Of a stretch of DNA of 37,298 nt, positions 24,700-31,872 are shown one piece after another (position 1 is the stretch's first letter; the number at the start of each line of letters is the position of its first letter). Under the pieces are notes generated by a model, which ran no database searches, was not told the DNA's origin, and saw nothing but the letters and a program-made list of their open reading frames with translations. The stretch spans positions 1-37,298 of IMG/VR virus record IMGVR_UViG_3300021505_000003; one strand, given 5' to 3'. The translations under genes and the position numbers were made by a program. Origin of the DNA: a virus.

Positions 24700-25150
24700 G
24701 TTACGAAGCCATGCTATACGTTACCGCTGCTTTGCCTTTCCTTGCTTTCCTTTACCCTCACCTCACCACACCTTACTTTACCTCTGCCAATGCTTTGCTT
24801 TTGATTGTTTTACAATTCTTTACCTATGCCTTACCTCACCTCTCCTTACTTTACCATTACATTGCCACACCTTACCAAACTTTCACATGGCTCTTCCAAA
24901 CCTTACCTTGCCCATGCAAGGCATTACCCACCATGCCCTGCTCCGCCAATGCCTATGCTTTGGGACACAAAGCCTTGCCTTTGCTTTATAAAGGGACCGC
25001 ATTGCCAAGCTTTGCATAACTGAACTTTAAAATGCATTGCCTTTGCCTTTACTATGCAATTCATCGTCGTTGCCCAGCAGTTCTCCGCCCTTGCTTTTCC
25101 TAGCTAGACCTTGCCTTTGCCTACTCAGCAGTCATTACTTTACCTCACCT
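24700..25150 (-). repeat. Degenerate GGYAA short-period repeat tract, noncoding
   Basis: This ~450-bp stretch has no credible gene. On the minus (transcribed) strand it is made of short, irregularly spaced units of the form GGTAA or GGCAA plus one to several bases (GGTAAG, GGCAAAG, GGTGAG). By eye about 20 copies of GGYAA occur here, where roughly one is expected by chance in this length. It reads CTTACC/TTTGCC on the plus strand, giving low-complexity spurious open frames. It starts at the very end of the RAMP-like gene and stops before the gene at 24676. Function unknown: candidate structured or protein-binding RNA, origin or slippage-born satellite. Confidence 0.8.
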
Positions 25151-25794
25151 TTGCTCCGTTTTTTCTTTTCTTTTATACGTTCCCACTTAAAACGTCCATA
25201 ACCTGCGTTTCTCCACTGACCTAACCCTTTGAATTTCCCATAATCCAGAAGCGCCTCAATCACTTTAAAATTTAACTCTTTATGGGGAAGTAGCGTAATT
25301 TTTACTTCAAAGGACATCGGTTCAATATAGTCAGAGGACACAAGTGATACCCTGGGACCCTGCGGGGTCATTGCCCTTAACGGGCGCTGAAGAGTTCCAT
25401 CTGGATGTTCCTTAAGCCAGATCCAATCAGGTTCTACAAAAACGTAGTTGTCTATTTTAGACTTAAGATTTTTAATTTTTAAAGACTCTTTTAGGACATT
25501 CCCTGCCTCTTTCAAAAAGCCTTTTATTTGATAAGCTTTTAAGTATATTCCGTCAGGATCCGTATAAAAACCAGTCTCATTATCACCATCTGGAGTCATC
25601 TTCTGTTCAATTTGTTGCTGCATCTCCTGTTCATCTAATTGTTCAGGGTCCTCATCAGTTAAGTCTTTACTGTTACCAAAATATTTTTCCTGAACATATT
25701 TACGGAAAAGTTCTTTATTTTTGGGTAAACTGCCTAAAAGTTTCTCCAATAAAATTATTTTATAGCACCTGCTTTCAAATTCTAAATCGCTCAT
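25135..25794 (-). CDS. RAMP-superfamily (Cas7-like) protein, putative
   Basis: A 219-aa protein with features of RAMP (Cas5/6/7) proteins: an N-terminal strand then KLLGSLPKN, a helix-preceding loop KAYQIKGFLKEAGNVLK (about 87-103) like the Cas7 signature region, the conserved-looking RPLRAMTPQGPRVSL (about 137-151), and a C-terminal glycine-rich loop GLGQWRNAGYGRF (190-202). The acidic segment near 45-70 (DEDPEQLDEQEMQQQIEQ) may be disordered. No other effector-complex subunit or CRISPR array is in the window. Cas7 proteins coat RNA, so this may bind single-stranded nucleic acid, aid recombination with the neighbouring RecT, or interfere with CRISPR complexes. Fold assignment is by eye. Confidence 0.55.
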   Translation of the reverse strand: MSDLEFESRCYKIILLEKLLGSLPKNKELFRKYVQEKYFGNSKDLTDEDPEQLDEQEMQQQIEQKMTPDGDNETGFYTDPDGIYLKAYQIKGFLKEAGNVLKESLKIKNLKSKIDNYVFVEPDWIWLKEHPDGTLQRPLRAMTPQGPRVSLVSSDYIEPMSFEVKITLLPHKELNFKVIEALLDYGKFKGLGQWRNAGYGRFKWERIKEKKKRSKGEVK

Positions 25795-26222: not shown

Positions 26223-26660
26223 TTACATTCCTAAATGTTTTACTTTTTTCCTCAGTTCGGCAAATTCTTTTTTGATGTCTTCAGGCATATCAGGGGCATC
26301 ATCTCTTAAAAATCTTAATATTATCGGATCACCAGAAGTAGTTACATATTCAGTCGGATATTCCTTCCTTAAATGTTTACAATTGTGCTCTCGGCAACAA
26401 ACGTAAAGAGTTTCATTAATTATTAAATTGCCTAGTATTAGATTACCACATCTCTCACACATCGGATTCGGATAAATGGCATACAACGGTTCTTTTTTTC
26501 TAGGCGCAATTAGAATATTTTCCTCCCACTCCTTAGCTATCTCGTAACAATCTTTTAATTCACTACTAATTGCCTTTAGAGTTTTAAATTGTTCCTCAGA
26601 AACCTCGTGACTTAAGGCGTTTATTTTTATCCAAACTGATTTAATTTTTTCTTTAAGCAT
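26223..26660 (-). CDS. Zinc-ribbon-like protein of unknown function
   Basis: A 145-aa protein. The first 60 residues are helical (KIKSVWIKINALSHEV, then FKTLKAISSELKDCYEIA). The middle has a likely zinc ribbon: CERCGNLI, then YVCCREHNC about 20 residues later. The C-terminus is charged. I chose the ATG at 26660, which overlaps the stop of the nuclease gene and has a GGAGG site; a longer frame from 26708 would run inside the nuclease gene. It may be a nucleic-acid-binding accessory factor in recombination. Confidence 0.7.
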   Translation of the reverse strand: MLKEKIKSVWIKINALSHEVSEEQFKTLKAISSELKDCYEIAKEWEENILIAPRKKEPLYAIYPNPMCERCGNLILGNLIINETLYVCCREHNCKHLRKEYPTEYVTTSGDPIILRFLRDDAPDMPEDIKKEFAELRKKVKHLGM

Positions 26661-27477
26661 CTTTTGCCTCCTTTTTAGTTTTGGCTTTAGTTTTTTTGAT
26701 TTTACCAAATCTCATTGAGATTGTTGGGCTTAAATATAATCTGTTATTTTCATCTATTTGAAGTTCCTCTAAACCATTTTCTAATAAAAAAATTTTTAAT
26801 TGTTCTTTTACCTGTTTCAAAAAACCTTCTGCTATTAAAACCTTACTGGCAAGTTTAACAGCCTCTTCAACGCTGGTAATCGCTACAGCTTTTACTTCCT
26901 GAAGCTGATTTTCCGCATAACAATCTTTTATAAACGGACAATAACCGCAATGGTCTCCAGGTCTGCATGGAAAGTCCTCTGTGGTCAAAATAGTCTCACT
27001 GATCGTCACTAATTCCTCTTCAAAGTCTTTAAGATCATCTATATTGTAAACAAACCGCTTATAAAAATTACCTTTGAGACTTACAAAATAGCTTGTGAAA
27101 AACTGTAAATCAGGATATTTTTTAGATAACAACAAAGCGTAAATTTTTAATTGCTCATCATCGTTGGGCAGGTTATATAACTTCCAGTCCGCTATAGCAC
27201 AACTTAAACTATTATTAATGCTATAGCAGTCAATTACGCCTTTAAGGGTAAAGGTCAAAAAGTCTTCTTCAAAAACCTCTTCAAAAACAGGATTTGTAAA
27301 ATTCCTTTCAAAGGCGGGCTTAAAAAAATCTGGTATATTGCCTTTTGCAATCTTCTCATGTTCAGTAGACCCTTCTAACATCTTTTGGGTGGGCGCAGCC
27401 TTGCGCCCCTCAACATAAGTATAATAATATTTTTTTGGACAAGTTTTAAATGTTTTTATTCTAGAAAAACTAATCAT
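26653..27477 (-). CDS. PD-(D/E)XK nuclease of Cas4/AddB type with 4Fe-4S cluster
   Basis: A 274-aa exonuclease-like protein. Visible motifs: SFSRIKTFKTCPKKYYY at the start, His40 (GSTEHEKIA), Asp83 (GVIDCY), Asp97 and Lys99 (IADWKLY, the DxK core), Gln109 and Tyr113 (QLKIYA). Cys13 with Cys177, Cys180 and Cys186 (C-x2-C-x5-C) matches the iron-sulphur cluster ligands of Cas4 and AddB. Such enzymes resect DNA ends. Placed directly after recT it probably makes the single-stranded tails RecT anneals, like Redα/RecE with its partner. A Cas4-like adaptation role is not supported because no Cas1/Cas2 is present. Confidence 0.85.
   Translation of the reverse strand: MISFSRIKTFKTCPKKYYYTYVEGRKAAPTQKMLEGSTEHEKIAKGNIPDFFKPAFERNFTNPVFEEVFEEDFLTFTLKGVIDCYSINNSLSCAIADWKLYNLPNDDEQLKIYALLLSKKYPDLQFFTSYFVSLKGNFYKRFVYNIDDLKDFEEELVTISETILTTEDFPCRPGDHCGYCPFIKDCYAENQLQEVKAVAITSVEEAVKLASKVLIAEGFLKQVKEQLKIFLLENGLEELQIDENNRLYLSPTISMRFGKIKKTKAKTKKEAKDA
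27391..27408. other. GC-rich perfect inverted repeat inside the nuclease gene
   Basis: GGGCGCA (27391-27397) and TGCGCCC (27402-27408) form a perfect 7-bp stem with a 4-base loop in otherwise AT-rich DNA, within codons 24-29 of the nuclease gene. No T-run follows on either strand. It could slow translation or transcription or be a protein site; coding constraint (GRKAAP) may explain it. Confidence 0.4.
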
Positions 27478-27478
27478 C

Positions 27479-28258
27479 TTAAACCTCCTCTTTTAATAAG
27501 CTTTCAAAGTTTTTACCATTACCGTTTTTCTTTTCTTTTTTCATTAACCCTTCAATGTGTTTTATAATTTCTCCCTGGTTGCCTTCAAACTCTTCAAATA
27601 GCTCAATAAGGTCTGGGGTCTTAATTTTATATTTTTTAACCAAATTTTTTAAATCATCGGTCGCCACTTCTCTTATCTTTTCTATTGTCCACTCTTCTTC
27701 TGGTTTAGTCTCGGACTCTGCAGGTTCAGATGCGGGTGATACTTCAGCATCTATTATTTCAGGTGGGGTATCAGCAATCTCTTCTGGAGTATAAATACCA
27801 GCAATAACCCCTGGATAAACGGTGCGGATACCTTCACTAATAGTTCGTGCTCTCAACATAGCTCGTGGGTATCTTTTCCAGTTAGAACCAGCTTTATCAA
27901 ATAAACCAGCATTTTTAGCCATCTGTATTGTCCATTCAATAGTTACGCTGCCACCTTGAGGATGGCTGAAAGTAGCTCGTGCTTTTGTGTCCGTAAGCTC
28001 ATGCCACTCAACACGTCCGCCTACTTGCTGAAATCTCGCCAACATGGCATCCGCTCGCATGGCTGGACGACCCTGGATAATATGATATTCCTGTATTGCC
28101 TTCATCGGATGGAGACCTTCCGCTTGTGATAGCAACATCAGCGCCACAGCCTGTTCCTTTCTAGTTATCCCAAATAACCCACTCTTAACTACATAGTCCG
28201 CAATTTTTTCTACTTCTACAATACCAAATTCTTTTGGCGTTAAACTTTTTTCTGACAT
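27479..28258 (-). CDS. recT: RecT family single-strand annealing recombinase
   Basis: A 259-aa annealing protein. The conserved RecT core is visible: EAVALMLLSQAEGLHPMKAI-like segment (residues ~37-56), YHIIQGRPAMRADAMLARFQ (58-77), EWTIQMAKNAGLFDKAGSN, then NWKRYPRAMLRARTISEGIR and VIAGIYTPEE. RecT binds single-stranded DNA and anneals complementary strands or invades duplexes. The Glu/Pro-rich region after ~170 and a basic C-terminus are typical variable tails. Its stop is followed at once by the Fe-S nuclease gene, giving a recombination pair. Confidence 0.93.
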   Translation of the reverse strand: MSEKSLTPKEFGIVEVEKIADYVVKSGLFGITRKEQAVALMLLSQAEGLHPMKAIQEYHIIQGRPAMRADAMLARFQQVGGRVEWHELTDTKARATFSHPQGGSVTIEWTIQMAKNAGLFDKAGSNWKRYPRAMLRARTISEGIRTVYPGVIAGIYTPEEIADTPPEIIDAEVSPASEPAESETKPEEEWTIEKIREVATDDLKNLVKKYKIKTPDLIELFEEFEGNQGEIIKHIEGLMKKEKKNGNGKNFESLLKEEV

Positions 28259-28279: not shown

Positions 28280-28687
28280 TTATAAAATAATCCATTTCTT
28301 ATGTTGGAAAACAGACTTCTTTATAATGCGTCCATTTTCCAACTTTTCCTCAATTACCCTTCTCTCACTATGAGAGAAAAGGTAGCGAGGATATTTACCA
28401 GAACCATCCTCTAAACTTTTACAATACCTAGCCATCAGCCACATAAAAGCTGGTGAGCCTGCTGGAAAGATAATCCCAGCGTAAGAAAAGTTATCAGGAA
28501 AGATCTCTTCCACCACCCGACGAGCGAGATTTTTTAATGCATCCTCGTCAGAGGGTGTGTTGAGGAGTTCTTCCCGAAGATACTCAGGAAGTTCCTCAAT
28601 TTCTACAGGCTCAAGGAAAATTTTCTCCAGCTCTTTTATTTGAGCTGGCGTGAGATCGTGGTTTAATATTTTTAAAATTTTTGTCAT
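28280..28687 (-). CDS. Csx20-like putative ring nuclease (anti-type III CRISPR candidate)
   Basis: A 135-aa protein, first in the leftward operon. It resembles the CRISPR-associated Csx20 family: an N-terminal strand with LNHDLTPAQIKELEK (8-22), a LPEYL/N-x-P segment (33-45), a second strand ending in the small-residue loop FPAGSPAF (74-81), then LFSHSERRVIEEKLENG (103-119) and the end motif SVFQHKKW (125-132). Csx20 has a CARF-like fold and is thought to cleave cyclic oligoadenylate, the alarm signal of type III CRISPR. A phage copy, made early, could silence that defence. Recognition is by remembered family pattern; the active site and ligand size are not established from sequence. Confidence 0.55.
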   Translation of the reverse strand: MTKILKILNHDLTPAQIKELEKIFLEPVEIEELPEYLREELLNTPSDEDALKNLARRVVEEIFPDNFSYAGIIFPAGSPAFMWLMARYCKSLEDGSGKYPRYLFSHSERRVIEEKLENGRIIKKSVFQHKKWIIL

Positions 28688-28741
28688 AACAACCTCCTTT
28701 CAAATATTTTTTTTTTACTTTCCTTCCAAATGACCTCGTTG

Positions 28742-28770
28742 TTGAGAGCTATTATATAATTATATATTAT
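28742..28770 (+). promoter_or_regulatory. Rightward early promoter overlapping the leftward one
   Basis: TTGAGA (28742-28747), a 17-bp spacer and TATTAT (28765-28770) give a good sigma70-like promoter for the rightward module starting at 28830. Its elements interleave with those of the leftward promoter, so both cannot be occupied at once. The downstream leader (28777-28829) is A-rich and ends in GGGGG-type ribosome site (aaaaggggg). Confidence 0.65.
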
Positions 28771-28778
28771 GTTGTCAA
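28751..28778 (-). promoter_or_regulatory. Strong leftward early promoter
   Basis: On the minus strand TTGACA (plus 28773-28778), a 16-bp spacer and TATAAT (plus 28751-28756) form a consensus sigma70 promoter. Transcription should start near 28744, about 55 bases before the Csx20-like gene, whose AAAGGAGG site is good. It overlaps the rightward promoter at 28742-28770. Confidence 0.85.
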
Positions 28779-31512: not shown

Positions 31513-31872
31513 ATGGCTAAAAAATCTAGGTTTATTAGAAGTGTTGACGATCAGACTTGGTTTAAGTTTGCTGGGTATAGCAAGCTTGAAGGCAAGACGC
31601 AAGCACAATTTTTGGCATCTTTAATTAAACTTTACGAGCAATTTAACGGAGAAAATCTTGAAGAGGCTGCTCTTAAACTACAAAAAATACTAGAAAAGAG
31701 GCAAGTTGATCACTTCACAATCTTTAAATTTACCACTGAGTGGAAGGCTTGCTTGGGAACTCCAAATCTTGACACTGGAGAAGGAAGGGAACAAGTAAGG
31801 AAGTTAAAAGGTTGTAAAACATTAGCTGAGGCTGTAAGATGGGCTATTGAAAATCAAGTGGAACCCTATTAA
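31513..31872 (+). CDS. Ribbon-helix-helix-like small DNA-binding protein 2
   Basis: A 119-aa protein. Residues 5-45 hold the RHH-like unit (FIRSVDDQTW, KFAGYSKLEGK, TQAQFLASLIKLYEQ), paralogous to the protein at 31216. The C-terminal half (LEEAALKLQKILEKRQVDH, then KTLAEAVRWAIENQ) is an added helical domain, perhaps for multimerisation. It is the first gene behind a perfect consensus promoter, the usual position of an autoregulated repressor or replication control protein. The exact target is unknown. Confidence 0.65.
   Translation: MAKKSRFIRSVDDQTWFKFAGYSKLEGKTQAQFLASLIKLYEQFNGENLEEAALKLQKILEKRQVDHFTIFKFTTEWKACLGTPNLDTGEGREQVRKLKGCKTLAEAVRWAIENQVEPY

What the first reader, a model, noticed from the sequence alone, without database searches (positions are those of the whole stretch)
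28280..28687. Phage-encoded Csx20-like ring nuclease as first early gene
The 135-aa product shows a pattern I associate with Csx20: LNHDLTPAQ near the start, FPAGSPAF loop, SHSERRVIEE, and a SVFQHKKW end. Csx20 is a CARF-related protein linked to type III CRISPR and considered a ring nuclease that removes cyclic oligoadenylate. Known viral ring nucleases include AcrIII-1 (DUF1874); a phage Csx20-type version would be a different anti-type III solution. It is the first gene behind a consensus promoter, fitting an early counter-defence role. The sequence motifs are seen; the family and function are inference.
Basis: partly seen in the sequence, partly recalled or inferred. Interest (0 to 1): 0.86.

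Follow-up and report, generated by a model that had tools for sequence, protein, structure and literature searches.

The report
Diverged phage relative of Csx20
A bacterial virus carries, as the first gene behind a perfect promoter, a distant cousin of Csx20, an enzyme that destroys the alarm molecule of type III CRISPR immunity; it probably disarms that or a similar alarm, but nobody has tested this branch of the family.

Summary
Window 28280-28687, minus strand, encodes 135 aa behind a 12/12 sigma-70 promoter. The promoter and gene recur in a second phage (82% identical protein, dN/dS about 0.18). The family call also holds. Over its full length the protein matches curated Csx20 models (NCBIfam E=4.9e-10; PADLOC E=2.8e-9), and no other family competes. 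It keeps the core residues shared with CRISPR-linked Csx20 (H10, Q16, G77, R109, E113, G119, F127, H129). An AlphaFold model (pLDDT 86) aligns best to CARF/SAVED sensor domains, including the viral ring nuclease AcrIII-2. It is not ordinary Csx20: 39.9 bits against a cut-off of 70; the QGDFGA, YATTxR and HxRFR motifs are absent; and on a tree it joins a phage/plasmid clade separate from CRISPR-linked Csx20. That clade includes Fusobacterium phages, Rhodothermus phage RM378 and an unannotated "NLTQH" family. Csx20 is a proven cA4 ring nuclease and was already reported in four phage genomes (PMC12409355), so phage Csx20 is not new; the diverged mobile-element clade appears undescribed in the papers I could search. 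Best reading: an early anti-defence enzyme that cleaves cA4 or a related cyclic oligonucleotide. Activity, host and early expression are untested.

The parts
28280..28687 (-). Csx20-like protein gene (135 aa); candidate phage ring nuclease
   Evidence: NCBIfam CAS_Csx20 E=4.9e-10; PADLOC Csx20 E=2.8e-9; alignment with canonical Csx20; reciprocal HMMs and hhalign; AlphaFold CARF-like fold
28751..28778 (-). sigma-70-type promoter TTGACA-16-TATAAT (12/12 match), identical hexamers and spacing in the orthologous phage
28693..28698 (-). ribosome-binding site AGGAGG before the ATG
   Evidence: sequence
27479..28258 (-). RecT-like single-strand annealing protein, next gene of the run (21-nt gap)
   Evidence: Pfam RecT 9.2e-6, phrog_561 4.5e-30
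26653..27477 (-). PD-(D/E)XK (Cas4/RecB-like) exonuclease of the same run
   Evidence: Pfam PDDEXK_1 1.7e-18, phrog_69 exonuclease 3e-22, PADLOC Cas4 3.5e-14
25135..25794 (-). conserved protein of unknown function in the leftward run, with a RAMP-like glycine-rich C-terminal loop
   Evidence: weak Cas5/Cas7/Csm4 profile hits; structure prediction failed

Best explanation
The gene encodes a CARF-superfamily protein homologous to the CRISPR ring nuclease Csx20 (shown by sequence profiles). It probably acts as a homodimer that binds a cyclic oligoadenylate in the cleft formed by the beta1-alpha1 loop carrying H10, the G77 loop and the C-terminal strands carrying R109, E113, K123 and H129, and cuts it without metal (inferred from verified Csx20 and from the role of the motif-I histidine in Csx15). 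Made soon after injection from a strong sigma-70 promoter together with the phage recombination genes, it would remove cA4, or a related messenger, before host effectors such as Csx1 or Can are switched on, so disarming type III CRISPR or another cyclic-nucleotide defence (inferred). Shown: homology, retained core residues, CARF-like predicted fold, promoter, purifying selection. Inferred: dimerisation, ligand, cleavage, timing, anti-defence role.
For: Curated Csx20 models hit over nearly the whole protein (residues 5-132) with no competing family. A Csx20 HMM built from 28 CRISPR-type sequences hits it at E=5.9e-11, and profile-profile comparison of canonical and phage sets gives E=1.9e-17. 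The annotated Csx20 in the Arcobacter type III-A locus aligns from end to end. H10, Q16, G77, R109, E113, G119, F127 and H129 are kept in nearly all of 43 sequences. The model has pLDDT 85.7 and pTM 0.70; its 27 best solved-structure alignments are all CARF or SAVED domains (Z 5.0-7.1), rank 3 being the viral ring nuclease AcrIII-2, 9r8s, Z 6.5. Csx20 is a verified cA4 ring nuclease assayed with EDTA, and was found in four phage genomes (PMC12409355). The motif-I histidine, at the same place in the fold, is catalytic in Csx15 (PMC13148439). Conserved promoter and purifying selection. A canonical Csx20 occurs in an independent phage genome.
Against: The score is below the curated equivalog cut-off (39.9 against 70). 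The canonical QGDFGA, YATTxR and HxRFR motifs are replaced (FPAGSPAF, FSHSER, HKKW), so the ligand may differ or catalysis may be lost. Fold matches are all below Z 8, and Foldseek alone finds nothing significant in the PDB. No type III cas locus in the window; host and its defences unknown. Some relatives in the NLTQH branch have lost the histidines. The anti-CRISPR role of natively expressed AcrIII-1 is itself disputed (reference list of PMC12751052).
Confidence: 0.62

Rival explanations
1. Cyclic-nucleotide sponge: the protein binds cA4 or another cyclic oligonucleotide tightly but cleaves it slowly or not at all, lowering free messenger by sequestration.
For: Csx15, of the same CARF superfamily, includes non-enzymatic members that bind cA4 and oligomerise (PMC13148439). 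Sponges are a common phage strategy (same paper). The canonical Csx20 loop motifs are replaced here, and NLTQH-type plasmid relatives lack both histidines.
Against: H10 and H129 are retained in the window protein and its close phage relatives. PMC13148439 argues that type III systems make too much messenger for sponging to pay.
Confidence: 0.15
2. The protein acts on a different messenger (for example cA3, cA6 or a CBASS trinucleotide), and its target is CBASS or another cyclic-nucleotide defence rather than cA4-signalling type III CRISPR.
For: Csx20 has side activity on cA3 at high concentration (PMC12409355). The G77-loop motif differs from canonical Csx20. Several of the best fold matches are CBASS SAVED sensors such as Cap5 and Cap4. 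Diverged kin sit on enterobacterial conjugative plasmids, hosts in which type III CRISPR is rare (own knowledge).
Against: Tested Csx20 prefers cA4 and did not cut cA6 (PMC12409355). No direct evidence here for another ligand.
Confidence: 0.15
3. A CARF-like nucleotide-binding protein serving the recombination module itself (regulation of RecT or exonuclease), unrelated to defence.
For: The gene is the first of the recT-exonuclease run in the window. Relatives lie near recT and exonuclease genes in L008, in a Campylobacterota prophage (G212) and on Klebsiella and Providencia plasmids.
Against: Most other family records searched have no RecT (14 of 18 records lack one). Early recombination operons are also where phages put anti-defence genes, so the link does not separate the two readings. 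The clearest homologues are ring nucleases.
Confidence: 0.08

Closest known systems
Csx20 (CRISPR-associated cA4 ring nuclease; NCBIfam NF040559, PADLOC Csx20)
   Same: Full-length profile homology; core residues H10, Q16, G77, R109, E113, G119, F127, H129; CARF-like fold predicted here for the window protein and reported for Csx20; similar length (135 against about 125 aa)
   Different: Below the curated cut-off; lacks the QGDFGA, YATTxR and HxRFR motifs; phage operon with recT instead of a type III cas locus; separate clade on the tree
Csx20-like proteins of Fusobacterium phages JD-Fnp1/4/6/7 and phage MW202458
   Same: Phage-borne, same core residues, same non-canonical G-loop and HK[GK][FW] end; MW202458 joins the window protein on the tree (94/82)
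   Different: About 24-32% identical; other phage types and gene neighbourhoods; annotated only as hypothetical proteins or not at all
AcrIII-2 / Crn5 (viral SAVED ring nuclease)
   Same: Virus-encoded and CARF/SAVED-superfamily; third-best structural alignment (9r8s, Z 6.5)
   Different: SAVED domain of about 230 aa, no detectable sequence similarity; comes from CalpL
AcrIII-1 / Crn2 (DUF1874)
   Same: Proposed job: virus-encoded cA4 removal
   Different: Different family; no DUF1874 match to the window protein
Csx15 and Csx16
   Same: Small ring nucleases or sponges with a derived CARF-like fold; Csx15 has a motif-I histidine
   Different: Weaker profile match: PADLOC Csx15/20 model 4e-5; no NCBIfam Csx15 or Csx16 model hits the window protein

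Membership tests
Csx20 (NCBIfam NF040559 equivalog) | Whole-protein score over the curated cut-off of 70 bits | tested here: not met
   39.9 bits, E=4.9e-10; complete canonical members score 130-165
Csx20 (NCBIfam NF040559 equivalog) | Full-length homology to CRISPR-linked Csx20 | tested here: met
Csx20 (NCBIfam NF040559 equivalog) | Canonical motifs QGDFGA, YATTxR, F-x-H-x-RFR | tested here: not met
   replaced by AGSPAF, FSHSER, FQHKKW; only G, R, F and H of these are kept
Csx20 (NCBIfam NF040559 equivalog) | Family-wide conserved residues (motif-I His, Gln, Gly, Arg, C-terminal F-x-H) | tested here: met
Csx20 (NCBIfam NF040559 equivalog) | Encoded in or near a type III CRISPR locus | tested here: not met
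   phage genome; no Cas10 or complete cas gene set seen among the window's ORFs (profile searches of selected genes). Phage-borne Csx20 exists, so this does not exclude function
Csx20 (NCBIfam NF040559 equivalog) | Cleaves cA4 without metal | not testable with these tools
   needs a biochemical assay
CARF superfamily | CARF-like Rossmann fold | tested here: met
   27 best VIA-align rows are all CARF/SAVED, Z 5.0-7.1; all below Z 8 and Foldseek alone not significant, so support is moderate on structure alone
AcrIII-1 / Crn2 (DUF1874) | DUF1874 domain | tested here: not met
   no DUF1874 match in Pfam at E up to 10
Phage anti-CRISPR (Acr) protein | Shown to block CRISPR immunity | not testable with these tools
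   needs a plasmid-challenge or phage-plating assay

The most novel reading that the evidence does not exclude
The window protein belongs to a large, mostly unannotated mobile-element clade of Csx20-like proteins (phage type plus the NLTQH type on phages and conjugative plasmids). The clade forms a general anti-signalling family, often expressed with the early recombination genes, that degrades or binds cyclic oligonucleotides of several defences beyond cA4-signalling type III CRISPR; CRISPR-linked Csx20 would then be one sister branch.
Probability: 0.3. Interest if true: 0.75.

Novelty: new variant of a known kind. Interest (0 to 1): 0.52.

Why it matters
If the activity is confirmed, phages and plasmids hold a diverged branch of ring nucleases that present annotation misses: it scores under the cut-offs, has no informative PHROGs or Pfam family, and is labelled hypothetical or left unannotated. 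That would widen the known anti-type-III (or anti-CBASS) repertoire. It would also make testable which way the gene moved between mobile elements and CRISPR loci, and which residues set messenger specificity.

Tried and rejected
Pfam and PHROGs gave no meaningful hit. Searches of PDB sequences gave only chance matches. Viral-contig searches with the window protein alone and with the Fusobacterium set found no relatives; alignment A1 found the orthologue. A mixed alignment was too diverse for the pattern search. Plain Foldseek against the PDB gave no significant hit. Against viral models one unnamed 128-aa protein, A0A5Q2WBQ4, matched (E 5.6e-8, TM 0.61), not followed. A third related contig (IMGVR_UViG_3300022188_000042) ends before the position where the gene would lie, so it is silent. 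The structure of the RAMP-like operon neighbour came out at pLDDT 35 and is not interpreted. I considered that the protein might belong to an unrelated PADLOC 'peptidase'-labelled family (model Csx15/20/peptidase) and rejected it, because the Csx20 models score better.

Full report
WHAT IS THERE. The ORF at 28280-28687 lies on the minus strand and encodes 135 aa. The window is a phage genome of about 37 kb: terminase, portal and major head protein match PHROGs, and lysozyme, helicase and recombination genes are visible; no tRNA was found. The gene is the first of a leftward run: Csx20-like, RecT-like annealing protein, PD-(D/E)XK exonuclease, then small genes and a 219-aa protein. A perfect TTGACA-16-TATAAT promoter lies at 28778..28751. 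About 0.07 such sites are expected by base composition in the whole window, and two were found. An orthologous phage contig (IMGVR_UViG_3300026512_000038, locus L008) has the gene at 82% protein identity, with the same 12/12 promoter and 16-nt spacer and dN/dS about 0.18. The gene is real and under purifying selection. That it is expressed early is inference from promoter and position.

FAMILY. NCBIfam Csx20 hits residues 5-132 with E=4.9e-10 and 39.9 bits, below the curated cut-off of 70. Two PADLOC Csx20 models hit at 2.8e-9 and 7.3e-9. Pfam and PHROGs have nothing significant. By tblastn the protein and its phage kin find an annotated Csx20 in an Arcobacter type III-A locus and phage relatives in MW202458, four Fusobacterium phages and Rhodothermus phage RM378. 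I collected canonical Csx20 from Campylobacterota genomes (30 of 249 genomes hold one over the cut-off; complete ones score 130-165 bits), the phage types, and a third type with the motif NLTQH (RM378; a Caminibacter plasmid; viral contigs L046, L048-L050). HMMs built from each set find the others: the canonical HMM hits the window protein at E=5.9e-11. hhalign gives E=1.9e-17 (canonical against phage), 4.4e-13 (canonical against NLTQH) and 7.7e-19 (phage against NLTQH). Across 43 sequences H10, Q16, G77, R109, E113, G119, F127 and H129 of the window protein are nearly always kept. On a maximum-likelihood tree the canonical sequences (with one phage-borne canonical copy) form one side (100/99) and the phage, NLTQH and prophage sequences the other; the window protein groups with MW202458 (94/82). 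The canonical sample comes from Campylobacterota only, the branches are long and the root is unknown, so the tree does not tell which side is ancestral.

FOLD. AlphaFold2 on the window protein with six relatives gave pLDDT 85.7 and pTM 0.70, with order beta-alpha-beta-alpha-alpha-beta-alpha-beta-beta. The 27 best VIA-align matches among solved structures are all CARF or SAVED domains (Cap5, Cap4, Csx1-Crn2, Csm6, Can2, Cad1, Cam1, and at rank 3 AcrIII-2, the viral SAVED ring nuclease 9r8s, Z 6.5, 3.2 A over 102 residues). The best Z is 7.1, in a range the tool warns may reflect common folds, and plain Foldseek gave no significant PDB hit. The consistency of the list and the independent sequence evidence make a CARF-like fold the sensible reading. 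In the model H10 follows strand 1, the motif-I position where the catalytic histidine of Csx15 lies (PMC13148439); R109, E113, K123 and H129 lie in the two long C-terminal strands.

HOW IT PROBABLY WORKS. Csx20 is an experimentally verified ring nuclease: it degraded cA4 in EDTA buffer, fully degraded cA3 only at high protein concentration and did not cut cA6 (PMC12409355). The same paper found Csx20 in four of 28,114 phage genomes; I could not determine which. The most likely role here is removal of a cyclic oligoadenylate early in infection. The replaced loop motifs (canonical QGDFGA to AGSPAF, HxRFR to HKKW) leave the ligand open, and sponging remains possible. The claim 'works like Csx20' I hold at about 0.6; the claim 'is homologous to Csx20' is close to certain; the claim 'is a Csx20 equivalog' fails the curated cut-off and the motif test.

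CONTEXT AND SIGNIFICANCE. Canonical Csx20 also occurs in phages: IMGVR_UViG_3300026382_000071 (L082) carries one (163 bits) close to terminase-like and lysozyme-like genes, and the same gene is split across the ends of the related 46-kb contig IMGVR_UViG_3300026488_000003 (L083, L084). So mobile elements hold both canonical and diverged forms. The diverged clade has a recurrent, not universal, link to recombination genes: in the window and its orthologue, in a Campylobacterota prophage (G212), and on Klebsiella and Providencia conjugative plasmids (ssb-recT-exo-gene-MoxR). A RecT search found none in 14 of 18 family-bearing records. The two enterobacterial plasmid proteins have lost motif-I His and the F-x-H end; they match only the NLTQH HMM (54-58 bits), and the Klebsiella one matches neither Csx20 profile library, so they may bind without cutting or do something else.

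LIMITS. No activity, host or expression data exist. One related contig ends before the site. The neighbour with a RAMP-like glycine-rich loop could not be modelled. The literature library lacks most subscription journals and many preprints, so 'undescribed' for the NLTQH clade means not found in the papers I could search.

Noticed in passing
window 25135-25794 (-); L008:11353-12003; L089:2099-2740; L091:5983-6573: A 219-aa protein in the same leftward run has a C-terminal glycine-rich loop (GLGQWRNAGYGRF) like RAMP/Cas5-Cas7 proteins, with weak profile hits (PADLOC Cas5_IIId 9e-4, Cas7_IIId 3e-3; Csm4 0.018). A relative in a human-gut phage contig (L091) lies near exonuclease, recT and ssb genes.
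   Followed up: partly
L041:4514-4990 (= L088, Caminibacter plasmid); L004 (RM378); L046, L048, L049, L050; L087: An unannotated 'NLTQH-x-T' family on phages and plasmids is homologous to Csx20 (hhalign E 4e-13 to canonical, 8e-19 to phage type) and keeps the motif-I His and the C-terminal F-x-H.
   Followed up: yes
L085:3989-4369 (Klebsiella plasmid), L086:3995-4369 (Providencia plasmid): Diverged NLTQH-type proteins in the ssb-recT-exo module of MOBH conjugative plasmids have lost the motif-I His (NLTTY, NLTAY) and the F-x-H motif.
   Followed up: partly
L082:8001-8381; L083/L084 (IMGVR_UViG_3300026488_000003, 46,225 bases): A canonical Csx20 (163 bits) is encoded by a phage near terminase and lysozyme genes, outside any CRISPR locus; in the 46-kb contig the gene is split across the contig ends, which share a short overlap.
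   Followed up: yes
L045:246-506 (Pasteurella phage Pm86): An unannotated, probably N-terminally truncated member of the Csx20-like family (GGAPFF...YAFSQREVVE...IFKHAGW).
   Followed up: no
window 31458 (+): A second 12/12 sigma-70 promoter (TTGACA-16-TATAAT) lies upstream of the rightward gene at 31513.
   Followed up: no
L042:4441-4779 (G212 prophage): A Csx20-like prophage protein close to PD-(D/E)XK, RecT and SSB genes has FKFDG in place of the conserved F-x-H-x-G.
   Followed up: partly
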